Origin: Verticillium longisporum
Taxonomy: Eukaryota; Ascomycota; Sordariomycetes; Glomerellales; Plectosphaerellaceae
NCBI GenBank assembly: GCA_019188255.1
Contig: JAETXT010000008.1
Span: 1,736,001-1,800,000 of the forward strand
Length of the DNA: 64,000 bases
Reading direction: 5' to 3'
The notes under the pieces were generated by a model. That model was not told the DNA's origin. It did no database searches and saw only the letters and a list, made by a program, of their open reading frames with translations. The position numbers and the translations under genes were made by a program. This document shows positions 15,987 to 62,977 of the stretch, piece by piece. Numbering within the stretch: the stretch's first letter is position 1; each line of letters opens with the position of its first letter.

Positions 15987-17848
15987 ACGTAATCCACAAG
16001 CGAGTGGTTCACCCATGCGAGTGGTTCACTTCACCCCGACCCGACAAACATTCCGAGGAAAACCTCAACCCAAACGCCGTAAATCAATTAAAATCACTCC
16101 TCCTCGTCTTTTGCAGACGATGAGATAGCTACCTGACAAGTTCTCGCGTTGTGGCCGGTCTTCCCGCATACGCTACAGCATCGTTTCTTCGGCTGGGACC
16201 ACGACGCGGGACCCGGGTTCTGCAGCGTTTCCTCTTTTATCTGGATATCTACTTCCTTCTGAGCAATCTTGTCCTGTCCCTCGCCTACAGCCATGCTTCC
16301 TCCTTCCCGGAGACGTAGCTTTTTGGCCCTCCGGCGTCGGCTTAGTGTAGCATTTTCCTCTCGAAGGATCATAACCTCTGACTTCAAAAGAGCGATCTGG
16401 TGCATAACACCCCGCGTCCCCTTCGCAAGATAGTCAACAGCATCTAAAATTGACGTTGGGGAGCTTCCCTGGTGGCGTGAGATTCGCCCTTTGATGAAGT
16501 CAGTCTGGGAACCTGCCTCGAGCAGGTTAGTGGGCGTCTTAGAGACCCAAGAATCACGCTCCCCGTGGGACGTCCCCGGAGGCGTCGTCGTCCTCAACCT
16601 CACATCCAGCTTTGACAGGACTGTTTCCGGGTTATGGGGGACAAGCCCCGCTCCTCGAAAGCCTCCCTGGATGTTTTTTCTGTCATTGCTTGCTGAAATG
16701 CAGCCGAAAACGCCGGGAAGAAGTCCTCTTTGCTGATGTGCGTTGTACCCGCCCTCATCCTATCCTCGATTTGCCGACCGTATGCTTTCTTTAGTGGGCC
16801 AAAACACCCAACATCGAGAGGCTGGAGTAGATGTGACGAATGAGGAGGCATACAGAGTGTGATGATGTTGTTCTCCTTGCAGTAGAGTTCGAAGTCGACC
16901 GAGTGGTGACTTTCGTGGCCATCCAGGATCAGTAGGCGATAACCGCCCGAAGTACGGGACTTTGTATGCCTGTCAAAATGCCGAATCCATTCCAGACCAA
17001 TATCATTCGTCGTCCAGCCGTTTGGAGATGTTGCGATTCTCCAGTCGCGAGAAATCGCGTCGTCCTGGTACCAGCTCGAGAGGTGGTACTTGCCCGAAAC
17101 CACGATGAACGGCGGGACGGAGAAACCCAACGCGCCAACGCCCTGGATCACCGTAACCCATTCCCGGTTGCCTGGCTGCCTCATCTTCACATTGGACCGT
17201 CTTTCCGAACTGGTCACGACCATTCCGTTGGCGATAACGCCCATCTGGAAGCCGGTCTCGTCAAAGTTGTACATGTCAGCCTCTTGGATGCCGTACTTGG
17301 CGATCATGTTATGCACGAGGCGGAACCACGCGTTTATCGCGTCCGGATCTTCGCATTGGGCCCTCTTGTAGTCGTACTTGCGAAAGAAACGCGTCCGGAG
17401 CTCTGGTTGCCGTTTGACGAAGTTTGCGGCCCAGTTCTTCCCGACGCGTGGCGCGTCACGGTCGGCAAGCAGGCGATTCGCCATATCTCCGACCTCACCC
17501 AACCGGGGAGGGTAAGATCGCGCATCTAGGTCAAGGATATATTCGACAATAGTTTTCTCTTCTAGTACTGTTAATTTGGCAGAATTGGGCGGGCTTTCGC
17601 GTCGGGAGGGTTTGCCCTTCTGGCGTCGGAGGAGCGTCGTTAAGGGGACGGTGTAGATCCTCGCAGCACTCCGGGCGCTTAGGTTCGGGTCATTGTCCAT
17701 AGCTTGGATAGCAAGGAATAATTGACCTTCTTTTGAAAGAGTCTCCATCGCGGGCGGAGGTGGAATCTGTAGAATTCAGGTGTAGGTCGTGGGCCCGGGC
17801 GAAGTGAACCACTCGCTTGGGTGAACCACTCGCTTGTGGATTACGTTA
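15985..17848 (-). mobile_element. Pogo/Fot-type DNA transposon, copy A
   Basis: 1860-bp element 15987-17846 flanked by TA (15985-15986 and 17847-17848). Terminal inverted repeats of about 45 bp start ACGTAATCCACAAGCGAGTG and each contain the motif GCGAGTGGTTCAC twice at 17-bp spacing, probably paired transposase sites. Composition is normal, with no RIP signature, in sharp contrast to the flanks, so it arrived after RIP acted on them. By eye it matches copy C (61117-62975) base for base except for one A in a homopolymer. The TA duplications are now on exchanged partners because of the inferred inversion. Confidence 0.92.
16094..17748 (-). pseudogene. Fot/Pot-like DDE transposase with one frameshift (copy A)
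   Basis: Cut-and-paste transposase of the Tc1/mariner-related pogo group. The first frame (16600-17748, 382 residues) has an N-terminal pipsqueak/CENP-B type helix-turn-helix DNA-binding part (about residues 10-120) and the catalytic triad region: YNFDETGF (Asp163), LLILDGHES (Asp276), HLLQPLDVGCF (Asp312). At a run of six T (16674-16679; A6 on the coding strand) one base appears missing: restoring the frame there joins NIQGGFRGAGLVPHNPETV, the family's usual sequence, to the second frame (16094-16603). That frame holds a coiled-coil-like stretch and a CCHC zinc knuckle CSVCGKTGHNARTC. As written the tail is lost from the main product unless slippage on A6 occurs. Confidence 0.85.
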
Positions 17849-18780
17849 CTTAAAAATAAAAATATTATATTAAGCTAATATTAATAGGCGAAAAAAATAT
17901 ATTTCTAGGAAAGAGGAAGTATAATTCTATGTAAAAGATAGGATTAAATTACTTAAAAGGAGGTTAATAGTTAAATAAGAGAGGAAATATAGCGAAATCT
18001 AAGGCGCTCGATTTATTTAGAATTAAAGAAACGATACTATATTATATATAGTAAGACTAGATATAATATATAAACTTATTAGCTAATTCTCTTATTATCT
18101 AAATTAGATAAAGAAGTTAAATTTAATTAATTTATTGCTTTTTAATTATATTATTAATTAGAATATTTATAAGATCTAGATTAGAGTAGCTATTCGCTTA
18201 GGGTAGCTACTCGCTTATAGAGTATATTATATAAATTTATATAATAGAAATATAGAATTAATTAGGTCTATTATATATTAGAATTAATAGAGAGGGGGCG
18301 ATATTTAATATAGAATAGAAAAGTCTTATTCCAATTATTAATAATTAAGTAAGAGAGATAAGGGCTTAGAGGTACTTCTATAATAGCCCGCTAGTACTAT
18401 TTTAGCTAAGTACCCTCTTTCTAAAAGCTTTTCAATTCAAAAGCTAAGACGATTAGGGCCTTAGGCCCTAATCGTCTCGAGTATTTAGCGCTAAATGTAT
18501 TTAGTTCTAAGTAACTTCTTGAAAACGGCACTAGCGTACTATTTTCGAAGCACCTCTTTTAACCCTTATTCTATCTTCGATTTTAGACGGCCGGATTAAA
18601 GATATTCCACTCTAAAACTGCTTATATAAGCATTATAGGGCTAGGAGTGTGGCATCTATTTGGCACTAAAAGGGTGCTCTGATTAATTAGCACTAAGTTG
18701 AAAATCCCTTCCTATTCAGGGAAGGTTTAAATGAAAGAGGGGCCCCTGCTAGCGTGGTGCATTCATCCTGCAATATCTAG
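17849..18780. other. RIP-type AT-rich DNA grading into the gene island, with hairpins
   Basis: 17849 to about 18360 is AT-rich and lacks recognisable content. Composition rises to normal by 18700. Two adjacent inverted repeats are visible: AGCTTTT/AAAAGCT at about 18426-18445, and 13-14-bp arms (GACGATTAGGGCC and its complement) around a 3-nt loop at 18447-18477. No gene seen. Confidence 0.6.
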
Positions 18781-21822: not shown

Positions 21823-22605
21823 ACGTCATTCCCCATCTTACGGAGACGTCATCACTGGATACCCCACCAGAGCGTTCGCTCTATCGACACGACAATCGAC
21901 GCATATATATACGGCTGAATAACTTGATACACGCAACACCGATGCACTTGCAACAGGAAACAAGCCTTGGTTTTCATTCTTGGGGACGATTCTCATTAAC
22001 TTCACACTTGGACACTGGACATCAGGACATATCTGCCCTGCACTCTCTAAGATCCCCGGCGGGCATAGACACGGACAACGGTGGCGTACGTTTGCGCTTC
22101 TTTCGCCTCTTCAGAGGCCACGGCCACGCGCGCGCACACACGGCACAACCACAAGCACGAATACCTTGTCACACGAGACGGGTATGGCGTCAATCGCATA
22201 TGTATAGAAAAGATGAGGCCCATTCTGTTCTTTTGATCATCCAAAAGGCAGAAGCGTAGCGCATGGCCTAAAGTCGCTTTGTAAAGCATGATAGATAGAT
22301 TTGTTCGCCACAATCCGCCACTCTATAGGCGCGAGATGTGGTGTTCAATAACGTACATAACACCAACTTTAACCTGATGTATCTCTAGCGCCTGTGAAAG
22401 TTCATTTTCGTTGAATGGCATGCGGCGCCGTGCCCTGGGTTGGCTGTATCGTCGGCCCCAAAGCGGATGCAATGAATTTGGACATGACGAGACCGTCGAG
22501 TGAACCCACCATGGCGGGGATTGCGATCTCTTCTACCCACAGTGAGTCCTCGCCCACCGAATCATGCATTCAGGATCTGTCCTGCCACGGCCGCATTCGC
22601 CCTCA
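21823..22605. other. Intergenic, no gene seen
   Basis: 3' flank of the glycosyltransferase and spacer to the tRNA. Overlapping small open frames on both strands show no recognisable product. Confidence 0.4.
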
Positions 22606-24278: not shown

Positions 24279-26274
24279 ATGGCGGCTTCAGTGACACCGC
24301 AACGTCCAGTTCGCGTAGGTGGAGCATCTGGCGGCTTCACTGACCGAGTTGCCGGCATCCGGCGCCTTGCTGCCGACCCTGAAGTCGACGCCGTTGTTGG
24401 GGATTGGCTTTCCGAGAATGTCATGACCGGCTATGGAGCGGGAAAGGCACGAAAAGTTCAGTCTGACAAAGCGACCACGAAGCTGCCCCTTGAAGAACGG
24501 AAGAAGACGGCTTACTACGCCAGTACATTCCTCCAATGTTTTGAGCCAGCGATCCCTGAAATCGCCCGAAACGGCACCGAGTTGGTCGTGAACGCTGGAG
24601 CAAGCGACAAGGAACTTCTGGCCGAGGTCGTAGACGACATGGTGCTGAGAGGCGGCTTCGACATGAAGGTCGCCAGGGTTGAAGGCGATGATGTGACCTT
24701 ATCCTTCAAACGCCTGGTTGCTGAGGGGGCGACTTTTAGGAGTGTAACAGATGAAAGGACCTTGAACGAATGGGGATTCGACCCAATTTGCGCACAAGCA
24801 TACCTGGGAAGTTTGGGAATCGCTGAAGCTCTACGGCAAGGGGCAGATATAGTCATTTGTGGCAGGTCTGTTCACTCTGGCCTTTCTACATCTTGTGAAA
24901 AAAAAAGCTGATTCAAGTTAGGGTCTCTGATGCTGCGCCTTCGATCGGAATCGCAACTTGGTGGCATAACTGGGGAGCGTCCGATTTGGACGAGCTGGCA
25001 GGAGCTCTGGTCGCAGGACACCTGATCGAGTGCTCGGTTTTTGTTACTGGTGGCTACTACAGCCGCTTCAAAGACCTGATGAAAGCTAAGAAGCATCTTG
25101 ACCTGGGATTCCCCATAGCCGAGGTGTTCTCAGATGGGACATGCTCCATCACGAAGGAGGAGATGTCCAATGGTATCGTCAACGTCGAGACGGTGACCTC
25201 GCAGCTCATTTACGAAATCAATGGGCCGCTCTACTTCAATTCTGACGTTGTGGCTGTCCTTGAAGGCATTGCACTGGAGCAAATTGGTAAGGATCGAGTC
25301 CGTGTGTGTGGCGTCAAAGGCCCCCTTCCTCCTCCAACAACTCGGTGCGGGATCACCGCTCACGGAGGCTACCAAGCTGAATGGCACTTCTACCTCGTTG
25401 GACTGGACATCGAGGAAAAGTGTAAGTGGATGGAAGAGCAGGCGAAATTTGCCATCGGAGAGGAATTGATGAATCAATTCACCATGGTAAAGTTTCACGT
25501 CCACGGCAGCTCGCCAGACAACCCCGGAATCAGGAGCTCGCAACGGTTGATTTCCGAATATTTGCACAGGCTCAGGACGCGACCTTGTTCGACCCTACGT
25601 CAGTTGACGGTTTTTCAAGAAAACTGTACGAAACGGTATTGCAATCTTGCCCGGTATGCTCTGCCGCCTCGACTATTACGGAAGCGATGCTCATGGCTTT
25701 ACAGGGCGTCTCACGTTCAAATGACCTCAGGCAATCGGCCGCGAAGGGATACTGGGAGTATCTTGTCACGTCAATTCCGCATTCAGTTTGCGAGCATCGG
25801 GTACATTTTCTGTACGACGACAAACCAAGTATAAGTATACCAGCACCGCCCATAACCTCCGACTACGGGCCCCAAGACTCGTATGAAACGGAGGATCCAG
25901 TTCCTTGAGGGAGTTTTGGAGACACAATCGGAGCGCCACTTGGCTATATTGCGCTCGGTCGCTCTGGAGACAAAGCATCTGACGCCAATGTTGGTCTTTT
26001 CGTCAGCGGCGTCGAAGAATGGGACTGGCTGCGGTCTTTCCTTACAGTCAACAAGGTCCAAGAACTCCTAGGTCCCGAAGAATATCACGGTGGACGGATT
26101 GACCGCTTCGAGATGAAGAACATTCGAGCTGTCCATTTTTTGCTCAAGGATCATCTCGACAGAGGCTACAACTCAGGGTCAAAGCTGGACACTCTGGCGA
26201 AAATCCTCTGCGAGTATCTGAGGGCGAAGCATGTTCCAATCCCCCGCAAATTCCTACAAAAGGGGCACCTCTAA
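24279..26274 (+). pseudogene. AtuA-like (DUF1446) protein, copy 1, broken
   Basis: Homologue of AtuA, the conserved protein of the bacterial acyclic terpene utilisation operon, whose reaction is not established. One 56-nt intron (24866-24921) joins DIVICGR to VSDAAPSIG. Conserved landmarks: VGGASGGF at the N-terminus, NAGASDKELL, GDDVT, GHLIECS..VTGGYYS, KGPLPPPTT, and the C-terminal LGRSGDKASDANVGLF domain. Two defects: one base is missing in the C-run 25522-25525, so the frame shifts from SSPDNP into NQELATVDFRIFAQ; and TGA at 25906-25908 interrupts the frame just before GSFGDTIGAPLGYIALGRSG. The ending is QKGHL. Copy 3 (45209-47318) is the intact relative. The frameshift alone might be a sequencing error; the stop would need a second. 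Confidence 0.85.
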
Positions 26275-38985: not shown

Positions 38986-40855
38986 TCACAGTTTTGGCCG
39001 GCCGGCATTAGCCGCTAACATTTTCCTCCACTCTGCTTCTTTCTGGACAAGCTCAGTTGGCATCTCGATGACTCGGGCCCTGACGAACTCGCCCATGCTT
39101 TTAGCAAATCCGTCGAGCACATTGCTGCTGCTCACTCCGTCCTGTAGAATGCCCTTGACGACAAAGTGCACCGCCTGCAAGTAGACGAACTCGCAGCTCT
39201 CGATATGATACCTCTCGTCCCAGTCATCCCCTAGCAATTCCTTTACACGGTGGCTTGTCAAGTACCCTTGAAGCCATGCATATGCGCTTTCATCTCTGAC
39301 CCAGAAAACCGATGTTCGCGTTTCCTCCTTTGTCACCGCTTCTTGCCAAAACGAGGTCTCCCAGCGGTCGTCGCGTCATCCCGGGAGGAAAGATCTTCCT
39401 CATCATTGAGGACGACGCGACTCTTTTCGGCTCATCAGTCGGCTGTGTCGGGACTCGACCACAGTCCTTTGCGTCTCTCGCAGGTATAAACACTGCATCT
39501 TTCTTGCCGTCGATGAAATGCACCACCATTGGAACCTTATCCTGCTGCACCAACGCCGGAAAGTACTTGACATACGGCCTCGGTACCATTGTCCGCCAAT
39601 CCATACCCGCGTGGAATCCGCAGAAACCTTGAAGACCATTGTAGAATACGGCGCGCTTGAAGTCGTCAAAGGCCTCGGCCCGAGTGCCCTGCGCAAAAAT
39701 GCGGAACTGCACCGTTGCGGCTGCTTGCGAGCGCGGATCATGCTGTGCAGTGCCGTATTTTTCAATCGTGAATGTCGTAAAGGCGGATCGATCGATGGTC
39801 TTGAGGACTTGGGTTTTGAGAACATTGAACTTAAAATCCGTGTCAAGTCCTGCAGCATAGATGGAGATCTCAGCTTGGAAGCCACCAAGTAGACACACCG
39901 CAAGCTTGGCTGTCGGTGGTGGCGGAAGGCCTTTGATGTTGCTGAGACGTACGCGGTCAGTGCCGATCTGCGTGAGTTTGACACCGTGATTGTCAGCAAT
40001 GACATCGGGGTTGAGGTATATTGGCCCCTGGATCTCGTACAGCAGCTGTGCTTTGCATGTGTCGACAGTGACAATGCCGTTTGAGCCTTCAGGCTTCGTG
40101 ATAACGACGCCACCTTCGCTGTCAATCTCGGCAATCGGCCACCCCAATCTTTGCATGTCCCGAATTTCGCGTTGCCCGCGTTAGTTGCCGCCCGTGACGT
40201 ATGGACCGCATTCAATGAGATGACCAGCCATGAGGCTGCCAGCCAACGCATCATAGTCTGTTGTCTTCCACTCGTGCCACCAGGCCGCGAGGCCCATAAC
40301 CGGCGAAGCATCTGTGCATCTCCCACAGATGACAATGTCCGCACCTTCGGCCAGAGCCCTGACGATGCCAGCATATCCAGTGTAGACATTCGCAGCCAGC
40401 AACTTCTCGTTCTCAAGACGTAGATGCACGCCTGGTTGATCCAGGTGAGGAATTGTCCCAAAGCTGCCACTGCGAACTTTCTCTGTAACATCATCGCCGC
40501 TTACCCACGCAACCTTCAAGTTGTGGATGCCGATACTCTGAAGATAGGCGTCTGTCTTCTCCGCCAGACCTCGGGGGTTGAGCGCTCCGCCATCGTGCAC
40601 AATCTTGATACGCTTCTCGGCGACGAGTCGCGCTGCATCACCATTGTGCCAGGCAATCTGCTCAAGAAAATTCGGTTCATAGCCTAACGTGGGGTCTGTC
40701 TGAAGCTCTATGGCTTTCCACGCGATGTTAGACTCGGCAAGGTAGTCGGCAGTGATGGCGTCGACCTGGCCTTGCTTCGCGAGGCGATAAATCTGGTCAA
40801 TGCCATCATTAATTGCGCCAGAGCAGTTGCCGATGCGAATGGGTCGATTGAACAT
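38986..40855 (-). pseudogene. AtuA-like (DUF1446) protein, copy 2, broken
   Basis: Second AtuA homologue, clearly diverged from copies 1 and 3. Start chosen at the Met of MFNRPIRIGNCSGA (40855), typical for the family; the frame is open to 40933. Landmarks: HDGGALNPRGLA, WVSGDDVT, GHLIECGPYVTGGN, KGLPPPPTAK, and the C-terminal LARSGDKGGNANIGF. Defects: an in-frame TAA at 40181-40183 directly after VTGGN, inside a short imperfect duplication (GGCAAC...GGGCAACG); and an extra base in a four-base run at 39305-39308 that shifts NIGF out of the frame of WVRDESAYAWL. The final residues are RPKL. A missed intron at the TAA is conceivable but no good splice sites are visible. The N-terminal piece could still be made alone. 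Confidence 0.82.
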
Positions 40856-41504
40856 GGTGTCAATTTCGAAGAGCTCAGAGTAGAGTTTACTGACTCCCAA
40901 GTCATGCTGTGACAGGAGCCATAAATCGTTCACGGTCTCCGTGTTGTGTCATGGAAGCACCTTTCCAGCGCGAGGTTCGCAAGGCCGCCATGGATCTATT
41001 GCCTGCAAGCTAATTACTAGAGTGATACTTGGCTGCCGCATACATGCCTTGGGTGGCGCCTTTGTCAGTTGTGATAGTGGTGGTGCGGAGTCGCTTTTCC
41101 ATGGTCATCAGACAACGAAAAGGAGTTAAGGGACGTGAACGCGGGGTAGCACTAATGATTCAGAATGGCGCCTGGACATCATTCAGGGTCTCTCGTGCAG
41201 AGAACCCTGATTCTGCTACGGCGAAGAATGTGACTGAGCACCGGGCTAACGGATCATTGGCATGGGTAGCTAGCTGCCTGGTGATTGTTCGGTGCGTGTC
41301 CTGCATCACGGCTGTCATCAGCCTCTGATAATCTTTGGTTTCCAGAAGTAGGAGTCCAACGATAGGCTGTGTCAGAGGCCAGGGCTAAGCTTTGCCCCTG
41401 GATGTGACCGAGAGACTCTCTGTATTCATCACATACATATCTTCCTCGAGTGGCATGCTCCGTCACTGATTGTACTTAATCAATAGTGCATTTAACTTGT
41501 CAAA
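40856..41504. promoter_or_regulatory. Divergent spacer between AtuA-like copy 2 and ligase 2
   Basis: Start codons point away from each other, so this contains both promoters. No recognised coding sequence or binding site. Confidence 0.4.
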
Positions 41505-45208: not shown

Positions 45209-47318
45209 ATGGCACCAAGCGCAACCAACAACGGCCATCATGGGGCAAATGGGCATGGTGCCAAGCGGCCCATCAGAATCGCAGGTTGCTCTGGAGGTCA
45301 GTCTCGTTGATTTGAATGTTGATGTGAGGAACCAGTCTTAACATCCTCAGGCGTCTACGATCGCAAAAGGGCGATTCACGACATGGCAAAGAATGAAGAC
45401 GTCGATGTCATTACCGGCGATTGGATGTCTGAGTGTAACATGACCCTCCGCGGCTCCGACAAGCGTGACCGACTCGCCCAGAAAAAGATGTCTTCTGGCT
45501 CGACCGTCGTCGCCAAGGGGTACGAGCCGTACTTTTTGGACGAGTTGGAACCTGCGATTCCTCATCTCGCGAGCCGGGGAATCAAAATTGCTCTCAACGC
45601 CGGAGCAAGTGACGTCCATGGCCTCGCCTTGGCCGTCAAGGAGCTGATCATGAAACACGGCGTCGACCTGAAGGTTGGCGTGGTGAATGGCGATGATGTG
45701 ACTGACGCTGTCCTGGATCTGTTTCAAAAGGGTAACGTGCCATACATCATTTCACATGCCAAAAACAACTACTAACAAGTCAAAGGCGAAACGTTTCCCA
45801 ACCTCCCTGCGAATAAGCCTATCCAAGAGTGGGGGTTCGATCCTGTTTGCGCACAATGCTATCTCGGTGGTACAGGCATTGCCGAATGCTTCAGAAATGG
45901 GGCAGACATCGTACTTTGTGGATGGGTCGCAGATGCTTCAGTGACAGTCGGTGCTGCTATGTGGTGGCATGGCTGGACGCGCGAGAACTTAACCGAGCTG
46001 GCGGGCGCGCTAATGATTGGACATATCATCGAGTGCAGCACCTATGCCACAGGCGGCTACTATTCAGGGTTCAAGGACCTGAAGGGCGAGGACACGGATA
46101 TGGGATGTAAGTTGTGTCTACTGGTCATTTGACCATCGCTGACATGTGTGAGATCCCATCGCTGCCATTGACGAAAAAGGAGAGGCCATCATCACCATGG
46201 AGAAAGGCAAACATGGTCTGGTCAATACGCAGACTGTTGCTAGTCAGCTCCTGTACGAGATTCAGGGACCTTTGTATTACAACTCGGATGTCACAGCCTC
46301 CATCGAAGACATGCATCTCCAGGAAATCGACGAGAATGCCGTGCACGTCTCAGGCGTGAAGGGTCTACCACCTCCTTCTACGACGAAAGGTAAATCATGC
46401 GTTGGCAGGATCGGAACATTACTAACTTGAGCAGTTGGTATCACAGCCAAGGGCGGCTGGCAAGCCGAGTTTCACTTCTACCTAACGGGACTCGATATTG
46501 CTGAGAAAGCCGCAATGGTTGAGTGCCAGACGAAGGCACTCATGGGTGATCACATTAAGCGTTTCTCCTGCTTGAAGTTCATGGTGGCCGGAAATGTCCC
46601 CTCTGATCCGCAATCCCAGGAAGAAGCCACTGTTGATATGCGAATTTTCGCCCAGACGCGCGACCCGGATCTGCTTTCGGGAAATAACTTTGTCGATTCG
46701 GATCGTGGCTCCTTCGCGCGATTCTGTATCGAGAACCTTCTTCAGGGTTATCCGGGTAGCACGATGGCGCCAGATATGCGCACAGCCATCGGAAGGCCAT
46801 TTTTTGAATACTGGGTCAGCCTGCTGCCACAAAGCTTCGTGAATAAGACCGCGCATCTGCCAGACGGTAGGGTCCTGGACATTCCGTCACCTGTGGTGAC
46901 GAGAGAATATGCGCGCGAGCAACCCAGTTATGAGACCGAGTCCCCTGCCAACCTTGAGGATTTTGGGCCGACGACAAGGGGCCCCATCGGCTGGGTAGCC
47001 ATGGGACGTTCTGGCGACAAGAGTTCCAACTGTAACCTGGGCCTGTTTGTTCGCCACGACGACGAATGGGATTGGCTGAAGACCATCATGAGTACTAAAC
47101 AGTTGAGAAATATGTTGGGCAAGGATGATGTTGGAAACCAGATCGATCGATGTGAGTTCCCCAACATTCGAGCGGTGCACTTCTTGTTGAAGGATCATCT
47201 GGACCGCGGTTTCAACTCGACCAGCAGCTTTGACAGCCTGGGAAAGAACATGTGCGAGTATATTCGGGCGAAGCATGTCGATATTCCAAACATGTTCTTG
47301 GAGCGAGGAAGGATTTAG
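45209..47318 (+). CDS. AtuA-like (DUF1446) protein, copy 3, intact, 5 exons
   Basis: The only complete AtuA homologue here. Exons 45209-45296, 45351-45731, 45786-46106, 46153-46389 and 46435-47318 join in frame to 636 residues; introns of 54, 54, 46 and 45 nt have GT-AG ends. Landmarks: RIAGCSGGVYD, NAGASDVHGL, NGDDVTD, WGFDPVCAQCYLG, GHIIECSTYATGGYYSGF, KGLPPPSTT, TVDMRIFAQ, and the C-terminal domain MGRSGDKSSNCNLGLFVRHDDEW...KDHLDRG. The N-terminus (MAPSATNNGHHG) is polar and carries no obvious targeting signal; the C-terminus LERGRI lacks PTS1. In bacteria AtuA is tied to citronellol/geraniol catabolism genetically but its reaction is undefined (established), so only membership of the pathway can be proposed. 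It is closer to copy 1 than to copy 2. Confidence 0.93.
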
Positions 47319-50800: not shown

Positions 50801-51958
50801 TTAAGAGTACTCTAATAACGATATTAAGAAGGCTTCGTAGCTAATTAATCCTATTTTCTAAAATATTATATAGATATATAATATAATTCTAAACCCTCTA
50901 GCCCTCTATTTATAATATTACTTTAATCCCTCCTATAGCTATTCTATAACCTCTACTTTCTAAATATTAACCTATTAATTTTAAGAACCCTTAATATATC
51001 CTTTATAATCTTTAATTCGATTCTAGTTCTAACGATATTATTATAATTATTAGAGACTTTATAATTAAATAATATAATAGATTCTTACCCCTTCCCTATT
51101 ACGATTTAATATTACTATCGCTTTAACCTTATATTATATATTATATATAAAGGAATAAAGGATCGTAGAAGCTAAATACGTATTTATAGGCTCTTTATTA
51201 TAGAGATCCTTAAAGGAGATATAATTAAGCTAAACTTCTAGCTTTATTAATAATATAATAAGATTTATAACGTTTAACTCTTTAAGGCTATTTTAATAAT
51301 CTTTATAATAATTTATCTTAGAAGAAATATAAAGTATTCGAATTCTTAAATAAATAGATAGAGGAAGACTCTTTAAATACTTTAGAGTTAATAGTATAAT
51401 ATATTATAATATATAAATCTTTAATAGATTAAATAGAAGAGCTTATTCTTATATTTATTATAATAATAAACTAGCCCTTTAATATCTTTAATACTTTATA
51501 CTTTAATTAGCTCTTTATATAATTAAATCCTTATATTATCCTAGTAATACCGTAGAGATAAACCTCTCTCTAATAGTATCTCTCTAGGGTTTTTACTATA
51601 AAGAAGAAATAAATATAATATTAATTAATAGCTTCGAAGTCTTAGATCTATTTTATATTCGATTATTAGACTTCGCTAAATAGCTTAATAATATTAACTA
51701 TTTCCTATTACTATATAAGCTATAATAATATTTAATAATAATATCTTCTTATTCTCTAATAATAGTATAGAAGCTATATAAGCTAGAATACTATAGCTTT
51801 TATTATATCTATTATTAGGGAATAGGATATCTTAAATCGTATTAATATCTTAGTCTTAAATAATATATAGATTAATAATTCTTATAATTAAGAGCTATTC
51901 TAATAGCTAATTCTATTTATAATAATTAATAATATATTAGAACGATAAATATAATATT

Positions 51959-52247
51959 TATTAAGAGGGCTTTACTATTTATATAAACCCTAATTCATTA
52001 CTTTAGCTATGCTTAAGAGCTCTGAATTAGTAGGGTAGGTAATATAAGGGTTATAATTATTAATGATTCTATCTCTCTAAATTACCGCTACCTACGTAAA
52101 TTAGATATACCTATCTAATTTACCGATTACGTAAGCTATGAATTACGTGCTCCTGAGAGCTATAAATCCTAGCCCTAGTAATTACTATATCGGTGAATCC
52201 TATATAGTAATTACTAACCTAGGTAATCCCCTAATATTAGTTTAATA
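51959..52247. repeat. Left LTR of copia-like element 2
   Basis: 289 bp, TATTAAGAGGGC...TTAGTTTAATA, of a subtype distinct from element 1 (e.g. GGGTTATAATTATTAAT). Confidence 0.85.
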
Positions 52248-54369
52248 CTAGCTATCTTTTCTTTATAGATAGGATTACTTAAGGGACTAATATCGGGCTC
52301 TATTATCTATATTAATAGCTATTCTAATACGCTTATAATCCTCTAGTCTCTAGTATATTAGATCTATTATCCTAATCTATAAAATGAATAAATGAATAAG
52401 TAAATAAGTAATAATAGGAGAATAATAGATAGAATAAGGAAAAATATAGCTTAATATTACTATTCCTATAAGCGCTAAATCCCTAGTCCCTAATACTATA
52501 GATTAATTAAACTAGCTGCTAAATAGCTCTCTAAGGAAACGAATTAAATTATAATTAAATAATAGGAATAGGCTTTTAAACCCTTTAATAAAGGAAATAA
52601 ATAGTAAATAAATAGTATAATAGCTAATTAAATAGCGCTCTTATAATAGCTAGATATAAGCTCCTAAAGTCTCTAAATCGCTAATATATTAATAGAGGGT
52701 AGAAGAATAATTATTATTTCCCCTTTTATTAGCTTTCTCGATAGGAATAATAGAATTAAACTACCTTTAATAGGAATAATAGAATTAAATTACCTAAATA
52801 GGATTAATAGATCCTATTAAGCTAGTTTAGTAAATACTATACTCTATAGATTTATTTATCTAATTAATAAATTATAGTAACTCTATTCCTTTTACTTTCC
52901 CTCTTCCCTATAATGATTCTTTATTTTTAAGATTAATTAGCCTAATCTACTATTTTAGAGCTCTAACGATTACTAAATCCCCATTTTTACTACTCTCTCT
53001 CTCTCTTTTTCTCTTATCCCGGCCTCGATAATGCCGCTTAAATATAAAGCCCCTATACTTATTACCCCTCCCGCTAAAAGAATAGCGAAGTATAAGAACC
53101 TAGTTAGTATTAATCGTAGGAGCTACTAATCTAGGATATAGTATATATATATAGTAATATTTATAAGGTCCTTTATTTAGAGTATTTAAAGTCTTATCTT
53201 ATTAATAAGTAAATTAAAATTAACGCTAATAGCGTATATTATAATTTAGAGCTTAAAGGTTCCTATTATTATAAATATACTTCTAAATACTTTTATAAAC
53301 TAATATAAGCTTCTACGATCTCTATTTTCTAATATCTATAGCTCTAATAATTATTATCTATAGTTTAATCGGAGCGTTTAAGCCCGCTATAAAGTTTTTA
53401 GCTACCTAGAATAAGAATAATAAGCTAATAAGCTCTCTTCTTTATTATTTCCTTAATTATTTAATTATATAATTAGCTAATAGGGGATATAGGATATAGA
53501 GAAATAATATATTATTATAAAGGGTATATTAACGATTATTAAGGAGGAGGAGGCAAAGGGGGGTAATAATCTTAATAAGGACCTTAATAGTCTTTATAAT
53601 ACCGATTATAAAGCGGCTAAGCGGGCCGTAGCTCTATAGCTCTTTAATTACCTCTAATAGGACTCGCTAAAGTAATTAAACTCGGATTCTTCGGATTCCG
53701 AGGCCTAATCCGCTTTATAGAGTAGTTACTTTACTATTTTACTAATCGTAGAATTATCGTTTTTACTTTAGGGTACTCGTTTTTAGGCTTTATTATATTT
53801 TTACTAATATTAATTACTTTTACCCCCTAATTATTCTTTTCTTAACGTTTAATTTATCCTTTAATCCTAATTATAATTTCATTAGAGCTTATTAGCGCTT
53901 CTAATACTTAGTTTAGTACTCCTTTAATTATTAAATCTATAGAATTATTACCTCTAGTAATCTAATAAATTTCGTTAACTTCGTATTCTTCGTAGCTTTA
54001 CTATAATACTATAAGATCTATTATTAAATATTTCTCTACTATTATACTTAATTAAATTAAGTATTAGTAGAGCGAATAGTTATTAGTATAGATAATTATC
54101 TATAAGAGTAGTAGTTATAAGTATTTATAGATCTCTTAGAGCGTCTATTTAAGGATATAAGCTATATTAAAGCTATTAACTATCCTATAGATCTTATTAG
54201 CTAGAATTAAATATATAATCCATTTATATTTAATAGATTATTAATAGAGGATATTACTATATATTATAAAGGCATTCTCTTAATCGTAAGAACGTTTATT
54301 ATTAAAGAGGATAATAAATCCGATCTATAAACTTAGATCCTTATTATTAGTAAAGGAGCTATTAATAAA

Positions 54370-56233
54370 TAACGTGCATGATAAGCAAGTGGGCCAAACA
54401 AGCAAGTGGGCCACCTGACGACGAAAACGCGACCTTCTTACGTTAACCATTAATTCCTCCACCAACAACGATGTCTCCGCCCTCACAAGAACGTCAATTA
54501 CAGCTTGCTCTTCAGGCTATTCAAAATGACCCAGATCTCAGTATACGCGCTGCGACAAATATCTTTGGTGTTCCCCGAATGACCTTGACTCGTCGACTAC
54601 GCGGTATTACTTCGCAACGCGACAGGATCCCCCTCAATCGAAATTTGACGGAGCTCGAGGAGTTAACGATTGTTCAATACATACTTGAGCTAAATTCCCG
54701 AGCATTTCCTCCCCGGCTTTGTGAGGTTGAAGATATGGCTAATCGACTGCTAGCCGACCGCGACGCGCCGAGTGTCGGGAAGCGCTGGGCCTCAAACTTC
54801 GTCAGGCGACAACCAGAGCTTAAGACGCGTTTCTTTCGCAGATATGACTATCAGAGAGCCCAATGCGAAGATCCCGAGGCAATTCGCGATTGGTTCGCGC
54901 TCGTAAAGAACACAATCGCCAAATACGGTATCGCGGAGCCTGATATCTATAACTTCGATGAGACTGGGTTTATGATGGGCGTTATCGGGTCCGGAATGGT
55001 CGTTACGAACGCCGAAAGACGTTCTAATACGAAAATGGTCCAACCAGGAGGTCGGGAATGGGTGACAGTGATCCAAGGCGTTGGCGCAGACGGGTGGTGT
55101 GTCCCGCCGTTCATCATTATGGCGGGCAAAAATCACCTCTCAAGCTGGTACGAAGACAGCCCTCTACCTCACGACTGGGTAATCGCTACGACAGACAAAG
55201 GCTGGACAACAAATGAGAAAGGTCTAGAATGGATTCAGCATTTTGACAAGCATACCAAGCCCCGTCGGTCGGCCGGATATCGCCTCCTTATCCTAGATGG
55301 GCACCAAAGTCACCATTCCGTTGAGTTCGAGCTCTACTGCAAGGAAAACAACATCATTACGCTATGCATGCCTCCCCATTCATCTCACCTACTTCAACCT
55401 CTTGATGTTGGCTGTTTTGGCCCGCTAAAGCAGGCCTACGGTCGGCAAATTGAGAAGAAGATGAGGGCAGGTACAAGCCACATCACGAAGGAGGACTTCT
55501 TTCCCGCGTTTTTCGCAGCTTTCAAAGAAGCTATGACGGAAAGGAATATCAAGGGGGTTCAGAGGTGCTGGGCTTGTCCCAATGAGCCCCGAAATTGTGG
55601 TTTCAAAGCTGGATGTGAAGCTACGGACACCGACGCCCGTCGAGGGGGTCCCCGATACATCAGAACCTTGGGTCTCCCAAACGCCTCACAACCCGATTGA
55701 AGCTAGCTGTCAGTCAGAGTTTATTAAAGGTCGAATCGCCCGACACCAAGGAAGCTCTCCGACGTCGATTCTTAACGCTATAGACCACTTTACCAAGGGG
55801 ACGCGTGGAATCATGCATCAACTCGCCCTATTGAAGTCGGAGAACCAGATCCTTCGAGACGAGAACGCGACACTCAGCAAGCGTCGGAGAGCTAAGAAAA
55901 CACGTCTCAGGCAAGGAGGGAGTCTAACTCTAGGTGAGGGACAGGAGATACAAACCAATATCGAGGTTCAGGTCCAGATAAATGAGGAAACGCGTCAGAG
56001 AAGCAGTCGCCAACCAAGGGACGGGACGAAGAAACGGCGCTGCGGTGTCTGCGGCGAGCCTGGACATAATGCGCGAACTTGTCAGCTGGAGACGAGGGCT
56101 TCTGAAGAAGAGGATTTCAAGTAGTTTCAATTGATTTAAGGCGTTAGGGTTCACCGGGATGCTGCTGTCGTCGCATGGTCGTGGTCAGGTGGCCCACTTG
56201 CTTGTTTGGCCCACTTGCTTATCATGCACGTTA
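54370..56233 (+). mobile_element. Pogo/Fot-type DNA transposon, copy B (second family)
   Basis: 1860-bp element 54372-56231 with TA on both sides, inside copia-like element 2. Terminal repeats begin ACGTGCATGATAAGCAAGTG and contain AAGCAAGTGGGCCA twice at short spacing, the same design as copies A and C but a different sequence. Its composition is normal and not RIP-like. The encoded transposase is clearly related to but distinct from that of A and C. Confidence 0.92.
54471..56124 (+). pseudogene. Fot/Pot-like DDE transposase with one frameshift (copy B)
   Basis: Related to the transposase of copies A and C: N-terminal helix-turn-helix region (ALQAIQNDPDLSIRAATNIF), catalytic landmarks YNFDETGFMMG, LLILDGHQSHH and HLLQPLDVGCFGPLK. 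The main frame runs off into a false tail after ERNIKG near 55555, at a GGGGG run; the family sequence FRGAGLVPMSPEIVVSKLD continues in the frame that carries 55582-56124, with a coiled-coil-like stretch and the zinc knuckle CGVCGEPGHNARTC. Either one base is extra or two are missing. The break lies within a few codons of that in copies A and C but at a different run, so it arose separately. Confidence 0.82.
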
Positions 56234-59200
56234 TATAAAGTTAGACTATTAAGAGATCTAGGTATATATAATTTAGGCTATAGCCTATATTAGCGATCTA
56301 CTATTATATATATTTATTAAGCTATTTAAAGTCGTCCTCTTATAAGTTCTTAGCTTAGGCTATAATAGAGAAATCGAAGGCTACTTCTAATTAATAGGTT
56401 AAAGTAATATAAATACTACGAGCTCTCTAAGCAATATATTCCTATTCTAAGCTCGCTATCCCTAGGATTACTAGCTCTAGGCGATTATTTTAGCCTTTCT
56501 ATTAAATCGTAAGATCTTTAATTCTAACTTTAATAATATAGCTATTAAAGATACTATTAGATCCTATATTAAGGATAGAAGTAGGCTTTATTTAGAAGCT
56601 AGCGCTTTCGAGCTCTATTTATTCCTTTTATATAAATATAGGCTCTCCGAGGTTAAGGGTATCGTTAATCTATATTCCGATTAATCTAAAGCTCTCTCTA
56701 GCTCTAATTAGAAGTAAATATAGATCGTAGCCTATTAGAACGGCGTTTAGGCGCTCTCTATAATAGCATTAATAGGTTATAAACTAATAGAGACCTAACT
56801 CTATAATATTATAGAGTAGCTTTATAATATAGAAGACGATTCTATTAAAGTATTTATATTATAGCCCTTTAGGAATAGATAGGAGAATATTATATAATAG
56901 ATCTATAGCGCTCTAGGTATAGGCTTAACTAATATTATAGAATATTAATTAATAGCTATATTATTATAGTATTAAGGTAATTACTAGGATTAATCGTTAG
57001 CTATAATATATAATTATAAGCGATTATATTAATAGGGTTATCTTCTCCTAATTACTATATCCCTAAACTATTAGTCTTAACTTCTTATATAGGGCTTAAG
57101 GGAGGCCTTTTACCTCTCTTATAAGCTAGTATCTAAAGATCTTAGTACTAGGAAACGTAGATCTCCTAATTAGTACGATTACTCTAGCTACTAGGAATAA
57201 GTCGATTTCCTCCTAATCGGACTATTTAAAGAGCTTCCTAGGGGTCGTTATTCTACCTTTATTATATAATTAAATAGCTAGGTCGTACCCCTATTATTCC
57301 CTTTTAATAATAAATTAATATTCGATCTATAAAGTCCTAGTTATATTACTTTTACGATCTATAAAAGCTACTTATAATAGATTTATAGCGTTTATTAACT
57401 TCCTAGGTCTCCTATATCGTTATAATAGAATTAATTCTAAATACTTAAATAGTTCTAGGGTCTTTAGAGTTTAAATTACTATTATCTCCTTAGCCTATTA
57501 ATCTAGTAATCTATTATATAGCTTAATATATATTCCTCTAAACTCTATTAAGCTATTAATTATTTCGATTGTAATCGCTATATTAGAAACTAATATAACC
57601 TTATAGAGACTAGTCTATTTCTCCTATTCTCGGAATATAAGAACATTGCTTCCTAGCTCTAGTAATCTTAGTAATAATTACTTAGTATCTAGTCTATTAT
57701 AAGTATTAAGAGCATTATTAACCTTCCGCTTAGCGATTATTCGCTAAAGCTCCGCTATCGCTTTATTAACTACTTTAGCGTACTATACCTAGATTATAAT
57801 AGGTACTAAGTTAGTAGTAATCCTAAGCATCGCCCTAAATATAAGTAATATAAATACTAATCTATTAAGCTTAGTAATATCGTTTATTATCTTTATAGCT
57901 CCCTAAAGTAGCGATTCTAGGCTCGTATTACGAGACTCTACTTTTAAGATCTCGTATACTCTATATATCGGCTTATAATAGCTCTTAACTTTACTAATTA
58001 ACTAATAGGCCTTTATAGGGATCTAATAGTAGGTTATACCTAGGAGGCGTACCTCTACCCTAAACTCTATAGAGGTAAAGTTCGTTCTAGCGTTAATAGT
58101 TATAATATCTAGAGGCCTAAGGTATATATCTAATTAATACCTCTTAAGAGCTTCCTATATTATATAAACTATAAAATTAGGAATAAAAGTTATAGACTAG
58201 AATCCTATACTTATATCGATTATATAAAGAATAGGCTTTCTATTTAAATATATAATATCGATTAAAATCTTATAATTAAAGTCGATATCTAATTTTAGGG
58301 TAAACTTAAAGTATTATAGAGACTTCCTTTTAATTTAATAATAATAATAGAAGTAGTTTATTAATTCTAGAATATCCCGATTTATATCCTAGTCTATTCT
58401 CTAGAATAGGTTCTATAGCTTCTCTATAAATAAATAATTAAACTATTTATAAATATATTAGAGCTCTATTTCTATTAGAAATACTATTCTATTACTCTCT
58501 ATCCCTATTATATATATAATCCTAGAATTAATATAGGTCTTTATATTTAGGAAGAACTATAAATAGCCCTATTTACGAAAAATAGGCGTATACTCCTAGA
58601 TCTCCTTAATATACTTTACTAGCTTATTATATATATTATCTAAATAGATTCTAAGATCGTCTATATCCTTAATATAAAGTAGGAATAGGGTATCTATTAG
58701 GACGATATAGAATATAATTCTCTTAATTAGTATTAGAATAATAATCTCCTTTATTATAGAAATAGGATTTCCTACTCCGAATCTTATTCTAGCCTTTATT
58801 CCCTATTTATTAACTATTAGGCTTAATATTAAGGCTATTAGGGACCTTATTTATAAAGCTCCTATTATAGAAACTAATATTATACCTATATTAGGGATAA
58901 TACTATATTATATAGAAGTACTATTAATCTAATACTAGGTAAAGAGCTACTCTATTAGAGCTATTATTTTAGTCTTTGGATTACTCCCTTTAATTCTATA
59001 TTAGAACGATTTATTTACTAGGAAATATATAATATAAGTATTTATTAATTCGTTCTCGGGATTAGACTTAAAAGTATTATTTATTCTTAGCTTATTAGAA
59101 ATAGGATTATCTAATTCCGAGCTCTTAGTAGATTCTATTATTATTAAAAATTAATAGTATCCCTTCTATTAATCCCTATATACTTCCTATATATATTTCT

Positions 59201-61065
59201 ATTACTCTTTCGAATATTATTATTCTTCGAGAGAGTACTTTATCGATCTATAATCTAGTTTAGAATATATCTAATATTTACGAATTCTAGATAGTTAATA
59301 ATTATTAATTCTATATATTAATTACTCTCTATGATCTCCCCTTCTATTAGCCTAGCGATATCCGCTCTTATAATATCTATTAATATAGAAGTGCTTAAGT
59401 ATTTTAATATTCTCCTCTACCTTTAATATACTCTTAAGCTATATAGATAATATATTAAAAGATCGCTCTAGCCTTATTAATATAATCTTTAGCTCTAGGA
59501 CGCTTTAAATTACTCTTAGAGTATTTATATAGAAATAAGTCTCTTCCTTAAATATAGAATTAAATATTCTCTAATACTATTAAAGCCTATCTAGAAAGAT
59601 CTAGAGAACTTCTATTTATAGCTTTCCTATATTATTAACTTCTATTATTATAGAGTAGAATATTATTAAGCTCTAGTCTATATAATACTATATTCTATTA
59701 ATCTCCGAATTAAACTATTATTTAATTATTAAATATATTTAATAGAATCCTATATTCTAGTTTATATATTCTAGGAAGAAAGTTTATATATACCCTGAAG
59801 ATATATTTAAGAAGAGTATATAGAGCTATATATAGCGGATTTATAATAGTTTATAAATATCTATAAAGATATATATTTTATTATTAAGGATATTATATAT
59901 CTCCTTAGAATAATTATTCTCTTTATTCTAGAATAATATAAATTATTTAATTATAGTTCTATTAATTAGTAAATTTACCGATTTATATAATAATAGAGTA
60001 TAATACTAAGCTAATAGGTTCTAAATAATATTTAGGGGTAAGGTCTTATTTCTTTACGATTAAAGTATAATCTCTTATTAGCTAGATTACCTACTCTATT
60101 AATTAGATAACCCTAGAATTAGGGGCTATTAGGGATCTATCCTCCTTATTTATAGTTTTCGGATTTAGGATAGCTAAGTATTCCCTATAAGTTATTATTC
60201 GTCGTCCTACTAATCTCGCTATTCCTCTATTCTTTAGAGTACTAAATCCTAGTTAGTAATAATCGATTCTATTATATTAGGTATCTCTTCCTATAAAAAT
60301 ATTAGGATTAATCTCTTCGATATTTTAGTATTTATTATTCCTAGAAGAGGGATCCTATACTCTATTAGATATACCTTTAATATTTAAATAATTATTATAT
60401 TATAGGAGTTAAAGTCCTCTTTAGTCTAGCCCTAGAAGTCTTCGATAAATGCTTCTAAGAGGTAAACTCCCTTTATAGTCCTATATATACTTATTATTTT
60501 AAGGATCTAAGCGCTCTTAAGATCTATAGATATTAAATCTAGTAATCTAGGGAACTATAATTCTATTCTATTAACGATAAAATTAATATTAAGACCCTTC
60601 TTAACCTTCTACGTTAAGCGTAATATACTAAATTCTTCTAGAATACTATTAAACTCTTATTATATCTTTTTAGCGCTCTCTAGCTCTATTATAGAGCTAT
60701 TACTATAATCCGAGGAGCTTATTATTATTAATTTTATTAAAGCTCTATTATAGCTTATTAACTATTCTATAGAGCTTCGTTTATTAGGTTTAATAGCTAG
60801 TAATATAGCCTAGGTAGTAATCTTAAGCGTAGGAGTCCTAAGGTACTCGAAGTAGATAGTACTCCTATAGATTATATAAGAGGGGATTTCCCTATTACTA
60901 AGCTTTTATAAAAGTCCTAAAGTATTTAAAGTAAATAGTACTCTTATAATTACTTATAAAGTATAATTAATAAGCTTATATATAATGAATTTACTATCTA
61001 TAGGATCGATCCTAACTTCTCTAGCTCTAGCTATTCTATATTATATTAAATATAATACTAATTAG
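56234..61065 (-). repeat. Rest of copia-like element 2 interior
   Basis: AT-rich, RIP-mutated sequence that parallels 9500-14342 of element 1 almost line for line. No genes. Confidence 0.85.
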
Positions 61066-61114
61066 TATTAAGAGGGCTTTACTATTTATATAAACCCTAA
61101 TTTATTACTTTAGC

Positions 61115-62977
61115 TAACGTAATCCACAAGCGAGTGGTTCACCCAAGCGAGTGGTTCACTTCGCCCGGGCCCACGACCTACACCTGAATTCTACAGATTC
61201 CACCTCCGCCCGCGATGGAGACTCTTTCAAAAGAAGGTCAATTATTCCTTGCTATCCAAGCTATGGACAATGACCCGAACCTAAGCGCCCGGAGTGCTGC
61301 GAGGATCTACACCGTCCCCTTAACGACGCTCCTCCGACGCCAGAAGGGCAAACCCTCCCGACGCGAAAGCCCGCCCAATTCTGCCAAATTAACAGTACTA
61401 GAAGAGAAAACTATTGTCGAATATATCCTTGACCTAGATGCGCGATCTTACCCTCCCCGGTTGGGTGAGGTCGGAGATATGGCGAATCGCCTGCTTGCCG
61501 ACCGTGACGCGCCACGCGTCGGGAAGAACTGGGCCGCAAACTTCGTCAAACGGCAACCAGAGCTCCGGACGCGTTTCTTTCGCAAGTACGACTACAAGAG
61601 GGCCCAATGCGAAGATCCGGACGCGATAAACGCGTGGTTCCGCCTCGTGCATAACATGATCGCCAAGTACGGCATCCAAGAGGCTGACATGTACAACTTT
61701 GACGAGACCGGCTTCCAGATGGGCGTTATCGCCAACGGAATGGTCGTGACCAGTTCGGAAAGACGGTCCAATGTGAAGATGAGGCAGCCAGGCAACCGGG
61801 AATGGGTTACGGTGATCCAGGGCGTTGGCGCGTTGGGTTTCTCCGTCCCGCCGTTCATCGTGGTTTCGGGCAAGTACCACCTCTCGAGCTGGTACCAGGA
61901 CGACGCGATTTCTCGCGACTGGAGAATCGCAACATCTCCAAACGGCTGGACGACGAATGATATTGGTCTGGAATGGATTCGGCATTTTGACAGGCATACA
62001 AAGTCCCGTACTTCGGGCGGTTATCGCCTACTGATCCTGGATGGCCACGAAAGTCACCACTCGGTCGACTTCGAACTCTACTGCAAGGAGAACAACATCA
62101 TCACACTCTGTATGCCTCCTCATTCGTCACATCTACTCCAGCCTCTCGATGTTGGGTGTTTTGGCCCACTAAAGAAAGCATACGGTCGGCAAATCGAGGA
62201 TAGGATGAGGGCGGGTACAACGCACATCAGCAAAGAGGACTTCTTCCCGGCGTTTTCGGCTGCATTTCAGCAAGCAATGACAGAAAAAACATCCAGGGAG
62301 GCTTTCGAGGAGCGGGGCTTGTCCCCCATAACCCGGAAACAGTCCTGTCAAAGCTGGATGTGAGGTTGAGGACGACGACGCCTCCGGGGACGTCCCACGG
62401 GGAGCGTGATTCTTGGGTCTCTAAGACGCCCACTAACCTGCTCGAGGCAGGTTCCCAGACTGACTTCATCAAAGGGCGAATCTCACGCCACCAGGGAAGC
62501 TCCCCAACGTCAATTTTAGATGCTGTTGACTATCTTGCGAAGGGGACGCGGGGTGTTATGCACCAGATCGCTCTTTTGAAGTCAGAGGTTATGATCCTTC
62601 GAGAGGAAAATGCTACACTAAGCCGACGCCGGAGGGCCAAAAGCTACGTCTCCGGGAAGGAGGAAGCATGGCTGTAGGCGAGGGACAGGACAAGATTGCT
62701 CAGAAGGAAGTAGATATCCAGATAAAAGAGGAAACGCTGCAGAACCCGGGTCCCGCGTCGTGGTCCCAGCCGAAGAAACGATGCTGTAGCGTATGCGGGA
62801 AGACCGGCCACAACGCGAGAACTTGTCAGGTAGCTATCTCATCGTCTGCAAAAGACGAGGAGGAGTGATTTTAATTGATTTACGGCGTTTGGGTTGAGGT
62901 TTTCCTCGGAATGTTTGTCGGGTCGGGGTGAAGTGAACCACTCGCATGGGTGAACCACTCGCTTGTGGATTACGTTA
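61115..62977 (+). mobile_element. Pogo/Fot-type DNA transposon, copy C
   Basis: 1859-bp element 61117-62975, with TA at 61115-61116 and 62976-62977. By eye identical to copy A in inverted orientation apart from one A missing at 62639-62642. The left flank is the start of the right LTR of element 2; the right flank (62978-63020) is not the continuation of that LTR at the insertion point but a remnant of an LTR end. Normal composition, no RIP signature. Confidence 0.92.
61215..62868 (+). pseudogene. Fot/Pot-like DDE transposase with two frameshifts (copy C)
   Basis: The first frame (61215-62363) is identical in translation to that of copy A, with Asp163, Asp276 and Asp312 at the same places, and shares its frame break at the A6 run 62284-62289. 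A further break, not in copy A, lies at the A4 run 62639-62642 (A has five), which ends the second frame at 62677 so that the zinc-knuckle part reads on separately at 62668-62868. The copy is thus one base further decayed, or miscalled, than copy A. Confidence 0.85.

What the first reader, a model, noticed from the sequence alone, without database searches (positions are those of the whole stretch)
15987..62975. A 43-kb inversion carrying the whole gene island, with breakpoints in two inverted Pogo/Fot copies
Seen directly: the right LTR of copia-like element 2 stops after 51 bp at the TA where copy C begins (61116). The missing part is 45 kb away and inverted, directly beside copy A (15747-15986), cut at the same TA. 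Joined, the two parts make 289 bp, equal to the intact left LTR (51959-52247), and the outer 5-mers agree (ATATT at 51954-51958; AATAT at 15742-15746, its reverse complement). Copies A and C are near-identical and inverted. The simplest reading is recombination between the two copies, which flipped 17847-61116. This explains a cluster landing next to different flanks and shows DNA transposons reshaping a metabolic locus after RIP had ceased to act. A false join in assembly across 1.86-kb repeats would leave the same traces.
Basis: seen in the sequence. Interest (0 to 1): 0.92.

Follow-up and report, generated by a model that had tools for sequence, protein, structure and literature searches.

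The report
Transposon-split repeat marking chromosome rearrangement
In a fungal chromosome, two oppositely pointing copies of one young DNA transposon sit beside the two torn halves of a single older repeat 45 kb apart, which shows that the chromosome was rearranged at these transposons; it is a good example of a known process, but it took more than the single simple flip first proposed.

Summary
One 289-bp LTR of copia-like element 2 is split at one TA between the left ends of Pogo/Fot copies C and A, 45 kb apart and inverted. In the 72-Mb assembly one Pogo end carries each half, the outer 5-mers agree (ATATT), and the two outer flanks run into each other in three related loci.

A plain A x C exchange also requires the other two flanks (right of A, right of C) to form one former site. 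They do not: 7 of 7 other copies of the repeat right of A continue differently, and right of C is the end of another LTR. Three insertion sites are needed: exchange in steps, or one aberrant transposition using ends of two copies. One false assembly join would not explain it.

The locus is not special. Of 30 copies identical to C, 9 sit between flanks that do not belong together, 14 fit, 7 are undecided (then four changed by hand); control points 4 of 300. A tandem duplication with three Pogo copies on C10 is what unequal exchange leaves. Reads or a sister strain are needed.

The parts
15987..17846 (-). Pogo/Fot copy A, 1860 bp; its left end in the window is its 3' end
61117..62975 (+). Pogo/Fot copy C, 1859 bp; its left end is its 5' end; transposase ORF 61215-62363 with DDE_1 and HTH_Tnp_Tc5
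51959..61116 (+). copia-like element 2, RIP-aged, carrying an older Pogo-like copy B inside and losing its right LTR after 51 bp
   Evidence: self-comparison with element 1
51959..52247 (+). intact left LTR of element 2, 289 bp, preceded by ATATT (51954-51958)
61066..61116 (+). P1: first 51 bp of the right LTR of element 2, ending at the TA beside C
15747..15986 (-). P2: the rest of that LTR, reversed, beside A; outer 5-mer at 15742-15746 is the reverse complement of ATATT
17849..18240 (-). flA: repeat right of A, cut at the TA; 7 other genome copies continue with another sequence
62978..63020 (+). P3: last 43 bp of another LTR of the same family, cut at LTR 246, outer 5-mer AAAGA
63021..64000 (+). 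repeat R into which the P3 LTR was inserted; uninterrupted in L018-L020

Best explanation
Copies A and C are the scars of a rearrangement that ran through near-identical Pogo/Fot copies. Shown: a Pogo-bounded break divided the right LTR of element 2 at one TA and left its halves beside two inverted copies 45 kb apart; the other two flanks come from two further sites. Inferred: the mechanism is homologous exchange between Pogo copies (non-allelic homologous recombination) in at least two steps. An exchange between two copies pointing the same way, one in the flA repeat and one in the P3 LTR, removed what lay between and left one copy with flanks flA and P3. An exchange between that copy and the copy in element 2's LTR, pointing the other way, turned 17847-61116 round. 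The order of the steps is a guess.
For: Unique mutual partners P1/P2, equal outer 5-mers, outer flanks continuous in three related loci. flA and P3 do not pair, and their partners were not found, as a deletion between them would leave it. Exchange between Pogo copies is seen elsewhere: on C10 a Pogo - 3.4 kb - Pogo - 3.4 kb - Pogo array with 99.87% alike right flanks, the third copy at the predicted place and with fitting flanks; PMC3744419 states that homologous exchange should give three copies (passage).
Against: It needs three insertions and two events where aberrant transposition needs two insertions and one event. No crossover point can be shown: A and C differ at one run of A's only. 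No reads and no sister strain were available. The search patterns could miss strongly RIP-decayed partners.
Confidence: 0.48

Rival explanations
1. Reversed-ends (aberrant) transposition in one event. A sat in the flA repeat and C in the P3 LTR. The transposase took the 3' end of A and the 5' end of C and inserted them together into the TA of element 2's LTR; the two vacated flanks were sealed to each other. What is turned round is then the DNA left of A up to that scar, not the gene island.
For: One event and two copies explain the split LTR with TA on both sides and why flA and P3 do not pair. The ends at the split are one 3' end (A-left) and one 5' end (C-left). The partners of flA and P3 are not beside a Pogo. 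PMC2775673's supplementary legend describes inversion plus deletion when the two copies come from separate sites (passage). LTR 246 is a repeated Pogo target: C9:1291294 and C14:5368093 are ordinary insertions there.
Against: The one duplication examined fits exchange, not reversed-ends transposition. A 3' plus a 5' end is also what a split ordinary insertion shows.
Confidence: 0.3
2. Assembly error: identical 1.86-kb copies were joined wrongly.
For: All 40 scored copies are identical to C, and a passage in PMC4971763 tells of erroneous inversions in an earlier fungal assembly. No reads were seen here.
Against: One false join leaves the flA/P3 mismatch in either order, so at least two are needed, and false joins should keep the partners somewhere in the assembly, but those of flA and P3 were not found. 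The window has no N and the assembly has 16 contigs for 72 Mb, which suggests long reads (inference).
Confidence: 0.12
3. The first reader's plain two-copy inversion between A and C, with no third site.
For: P1/P2 and the opposite directions of A and C.
Against: flA and P3 are not one former site: 7 of 7 copies of the flA repeat continue otherwise and P3 is an LTR end in repeat R. It survives only if flA already lay against a truncated LTR before Pogo came.
Confidence: 0.05
4. Coincidence: C sits in element 2's own right LTR with LTR 52-245 lost beside it (P1 and P3 being one LTR), and P2 is an unrelated LTR half.
For: P1 and P3 lie in the same direction, and five loci show the two stretches 193-196 bp apart. 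Copy F shows a loss of 1290 bp of its host element beside it.
Against: P3's outer 5-mer is AAAGA against ATATT left of element 2, while P2's fits; P2's outer flank continues element 2's left flank in three loci; no other Pogo end found carries either half.
Confidence: 0.01

Closest known systems
Galileo-made inversion 2z3 of Drosophila buzzatii (PMC2775673; abstract and passages seen)
   Same: Two copies of one DNA transposon in opposite directions stand at the two breaks, with target sequences divided between them.
   Different: There both pairs of flanks are exchanged and both copies are chimeric, which proved exchange; here one pair matches and the other does not, and the copies are too alike to show a crossover.
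Repeat-associated rearrangements of Verticillium dahliae (PMC4971763; passages seen)
   Same: A fungus in which chromosome breaks coincide with highly similar transposons, explained by homology-based repair.
   Different: There breaks were found by comparing strains, over several families; here one young family is involved and the record is read from torn repeats of one genome.
[quoted passage not shown] abstract and passages seen)
   Same: Ends of two copies act together; a split target with a duplication on both sides fits P1/P2.
   Different: Another transposon superfamily and host; the Pogo-free scar that it leaves was not found here.
Fot1/Pogo transposons of ascomycetes
   Same: TA target, inverted ends, DDE_1 transposase with Tc5-type DNA-binding domain, about 1.9 kb.
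   Different: Nothing notable; what follows the 382-aa frame lies partly in an overlapping frame (62360-62677).

Membership tests
Pogo/Fot1 DNA transposon (copies A and C) | TA target, duplicated on both sides | tested here: met
   TA at both ends of A and C; one search also required it of L045-L074 (30 of 30)
Pogo/Fot1 DNA transposon (copies A and C) | terminal inverted repeats | tested here: met
   58 bp, 93%
Pogo/Fot1 DNA transposon (copies A and C) | DDE_1 transposase with Tc5/CENP-B-like DNA-binding domain | tested here: met
   PF03184 3e-31, PF03221 2.3e-06, PF05225 1.5e-04, each above its cut-off
Inversion by exchange between two inverted copies (Galileo type) | two copies of one transposon in opposite directions at the two breaks | tested here: met
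Inversion by exchange between two inverted copies (Galileo type) | first pair of divided flanks makes one former site | tested here: met
   P1/P2:
Inversion by exchange between two inverted copies (Galileo type) | second pair of divided flanks makes one former site | tested here: not met
   flA/P3:
Inversion by exchange between two inverted copies (Galileo type) | both copies chimeric | not testable with these tools
   A and C differ at one run of A's only
Reversed-ends transposition | a 5' and a 3' end of different copies at the two halves of one target | tested here: met
   not diagnostic, exchange gives the same
Reversed-ends transposition | transposon-free scar joining the two vacated flanks | not tested
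Tandem duplication by unequal exchange (C10, L058-L057) | three copies: one at each end and one between the duplicate stretches | tested here: met

The most novel reading that the evidence does not exclude
A Pogo/Fot transposase in a fungus joined ends of two different copies and inserted them into a third site, so that A and C mark one reversed-ends transposition; such events, together with exchange, put a large share of this young family at chromosome breaks while RIP no longer acted on it.
Probability: 0.27. Interest if true: 0.65.

Novelty: new member of a known kind. Interest (0 to 1): 0.48.

Why it matters
Torn, RIP-aged repeats act as a built-in record: each intact repeat family tells what a Pogo copy's neighbour should be, so rearrangements can be read from one genome without a sister strain. 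If the share seen here (9 of 23 decided among 30 copies) holds for the family, one young DNA transposon would account for very many breaks in a 72-Mb genome, and exchange could be told from aberrant transposition by looking for Pogo-free scars. For the gene island the lesson is modest: it lies in a rearranged piece of chromosome, and nothing here shows an effect on its genes.

Tried and rejected
Rejected: (1) The plain two-copy inversion, by the failed second pair. (2) Copy D (C15:1833718-1835577) as the third partner that closes the chain: its left flank is not the missing continuation of flA, and its LTR-bearing end is a 3' end like C's right end, so D and P3 cannot be two sides of one insertion. 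(3) C3:3339708 as partner of P3: same outer 5-mer, but another upstream flank. (4) Copy F (C16) as partner of P3 or E: outer 5-mer ACTTC against AAAGA and GTAAT. (5) H (C12) and L070 (C9) as partners of each other at LTR 149: ATTCC and GAGGC. (6) The single hit (C1:7794337) as the flA continuation: other sequence. (7) That A's extra base is a sequencing slip: four other copies have it. (8) L063 as a second P2: it has a whole LTR inserted 17 bp away in another copy of the same repeat. Undecided: whether E-left and D-left are one empty site (no spanning match in held loci).

Sorting of the 30 copies. The first automatic sorting gave 12 discordant, 9 concordant, 4 mixed, 5 without evidence; controls 6 of 300 discordant. 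The stricter one gave 11 discordant, 11 concordant, 2 conflicting, 6 undecided; controls 4 discordant, 196 concordant, 3 conflicting, 97 undecided of 300. I then changed four by hand after seeing them: L053 to concordant (joined flanks align straight through), L046 and L061 to concordant (their flanks are one Pogo, 1859 bp, apart in each other), L051 to undecided (its two witnesses L025 and L026 are 99.9% alike). Result 9, 14, 7. The controls were not gone through by hand.

At LTR positions 51, 149 and 246, 7 of the 10 Pogo copies looked at are discordant (A, C, D, E, F, H, L070) and 3 concordant (C9:1291294, C14:5368093, C10:4651329); without A and C, the reason for looking, 5 of 8. They were found by pattern, not drawn at random; one search listed 100 of 109 hits.

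Led nowhere: the species was not identified, and the outer 5-mer of D's element was not found.
Full report
THE OBSERVATION. The window is G000:C15:1736001-1800000 of a 72.0-Mb genome in 16 contigs. Copy A (15987-17846, minus) and copy C (61117-62975, plus) are 1860 and 1859 bp long, differ by a run of five against four A's, and have TA at both ends. The other copia-like element of the window (7152-14629) has CTAAT on both sides, so target duplications survive here. Element 2 begins with the LTR 51959-52247 after ATATT. Its right LTR stops after 51 bp at the TA before copy C. The rest, with the repeated TA, lies reversed at 15747-15986 beside copy A, again with ATATT outside.

IS THE PAIRING SAFE? 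Three checks say so. First, of the Pogo ends in the assembly one carries LTR 1-51 with 0 mismatches, and the 4 other hits have 3 mismatches each; one carries LTR 52 onwards with 0 mismatches, and the 7 others have 2-3. Second, the outer 5-mers agree; two 5-mers from AT-rich parts of the window agree with probability about 0.005. Third, 400 bp left of element 2 joined to 400 bp outside P2 matches L008 (32-471), L053 (32-471) and L090 (176-471) through the join at 401, at 68-69% identity. With the left half alone, at the same threshold, L008 is matched only up to 375, and L053 and L090 not at all; a longer left flank finds all three, stopping at 745 of 801, where the joined one runs to 871. These loci are of one family, so this is one line of evidence, not three. 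L063, a nearer relative of the outer flank of P2, has a whole LTR 17 bp away and is another insertion.

THE SECOND PAIR FAILS. If A and C were two ordinary insertions that exchanged once, the flank right of A (flA, from 17849) and the flank right of C (from 62978) must also have been one stretch. Seven other copies of the flA repeat were read past the junction. All seven keep the TA and continue with TTCT.., sharing at least 80 bp; L025 and L026 are 99.9% alike, so there are six independent witnesses. Right of C are the last 43 bp of another LTR of the copia family (P3), cut at LTR 246, followed by AAAGA and a repeat R that is uninterrupted in L018-L020. The flA continuation beside a Pogo end gave one hit with 2 mismatches, which is other sequence. 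R's upstream side with the LTR start gave no hit with up to 3 mismatches. Among LTR starts with RIP-tolerant letters, AAAGA stands before one, at C3:3339708, with another flank, and GTAAT before none. At LTR 246 the Pogo ends found are those of two concordant copies (C9:1291294, C14:5368093) and four unpaired halves, P3, E, D and F. F's 5-mer (ACTTC) fits neither E (GTAAT) nor P3. D and P3 are both on 3' ends and cannot be two sides of one insertion; D and E are on opposite ends and could be. P3 thus has no partner among these.

WHAT FOLLOWS. At least three insertion sites are involved: element 2's LTR, the flA repeat and P3's LTR. Two mechanisms remain. (i) Exchange in steps: a deletion between copies in flA and P3, and an inversion between the resulting copy and the one in element 2. 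(ii) One aberrant transposition in which the 3' end of A and the 5' end of C went together into element 2's LTR; then the inverted part is the DNA left of A, and a Pogo-free scar should lie there. One false join does not help, because turning 17847-61116 back leaves the flA/P3 copy discordant. Insertion of a hybrid made from one and the same site, the variant of aberrant transposition that mimics exchange (PMC2775673, passage), would also need flA and P3 to pair, and would give identical copies, while A and C differ at the run of A's.

WHICH ONE? Exchange between Pogo copies is visible elsewhere. On C10 two copies 5253 bp apart share their right flank at 99.87% over 1500 bp (L057, L058). The stretch between them repeats, a third Pogo follows at the predicted place, and its flanks are contiguous in element 2 (about 53774/53775). 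Three copies around two duplicate stretches is what PMC3744419 expects of homologous exchange; its reversed-ends duplications lacked one (passage). L061 and L062, 3 Mb apart on C10, share a left flank at 99.93% over 1500 bp. Copy F shows a loss of 1290 bp of its host element beside it, which either mechanism could leave. I prefer exchange (0.48) and keep aberrant transposition at 0.30 because it needs only one event.

HOW COMMON IS IT? All 40 scored copies of 487 first-look candidates are identical to C over 1859 bp. This is the top of a ranking: five other copies seen (A, D, E, G, H) carry the fifth A. For 30 of the 40 I asked whether repeats homologous to one flank run on into the other. The stricter automatic sorting gave 11 discordant, 11 concordant, 2 conflicting, 6 undecided; 300 control points 450-1050 bp away gave 4, 196, 3 and 97. 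After four changes by hand the count is 9 discordant, 14 concordant, 7 undecided.

WHAT IS KNOWN. Transposons at fungal rearrangement breaks are known: for Verticillium dahliae a passage of PMC4971763 says that 15 of the breakpoints in strain JR2 (19 rearrangements) colocalize with a repetitive element. Segmental duplication by recombination between repeats is proposed for Colletotrichum higginsianum (PMC5576322, passages). Inversions with DNA-transposon copies at both breaks are known in Drosophila (PMC2775673, abstract and passages). In a search for Fot1 with alternative or aberrant transposition or hybrid element insertion (15 of 99 papers listed, counts and abstract starts only), no listed paper holds both 'Fot1' and 'alternative transposition'; PMC3072357 holds 'Fot1' once and 'aberrant transposition' four times and was not opened. 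A fungal review names both mechanisms in general (PMC6679389, passages). So the process is known; this is a new example with an unusually readable record, and the claim of a single simple flip should be withdrawn.

LIMITS. Exchange and aberrant transposition are not separated by decisive evidence. Patterns could miss strongly RIP-decayed partners. That the family escaped RIP and that the assembly rests on long reads are inferences from identical copies and from contiguity.

Noticed in passing
window 20092-47318: The gene island between A and C holds open frames with AtuA domains at three places (24279-25834, 39290-40933, 46515-47318), two enoyl-CoA hydratases, two AMP-binding enzymes, a MaoC dehydratase, a short-chain dehydrogenase, a TRI12-type transporter and a family-2 glycosyltransferase: it looks like an acyclic-terpene or branched-acid breakdown cluster in a fungus. 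Frames were read without introns.
   Followed up: partly
window about 54372-56237: Copy B inside element 2 is a Pogo-like element of another subfamily (73% to C) with a 409-aa transposase frame; its flanks fit element 1, so it is an ordinary insertion.
   Followed up: partly
L058 and L057 (C10:3565239 and 3570492), third copy at C10:3575743: Tandem duplication of Pogo plus 3.4 kb of a reversed copia-like element, with three Pogo copies.
   Followed up: yes
L061 (C10:3175648) and L062 (C10:126540): Two Pogo copies 3 Mb apart share a left flank at 99.93% over the 1500 bp held but not the right flank: a recent duplication that stops at the transposon.
   Followed up: partly
C15:1828643-1830502 (E) and C15:1833718-1835577 (D): A second candidate split LTR about 30 kb right of the window: D-right carries LTR 246-1 reversed, E-right LTR 247-289, on opposite Pogo ends.
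   Followed up: partly
LTR position 246 (C9:1291294, C14:5368093, C15, C16:271083): The same TA of this LTR family has been hit by Pogo several times, with different outer 5-mers, so it looks like a preferred target.
   Followed up: partly
L053 (C10:6410834) against L005/L008 (C9:708584, 719147): A Pogo and a copia-like element sit at the same point of two copies of one repeat; L063 has an LTR 17 bp from element 2's site in the same repeat.
   Followed up: no
copies A, D, E, G (C10:4651329), H (C12:2249099): A Pogo variant with five A's where C and the 30 identical copies held have four: at least two young lineages.
   Followed up: partly
L025 (C12:73500) and L026 (C13:104900): Two stretches near the starts of two contigs are 99.93% alike over 2.7 kb: a recent, perhaps subtelomeric, duplication.
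   Followed up: no
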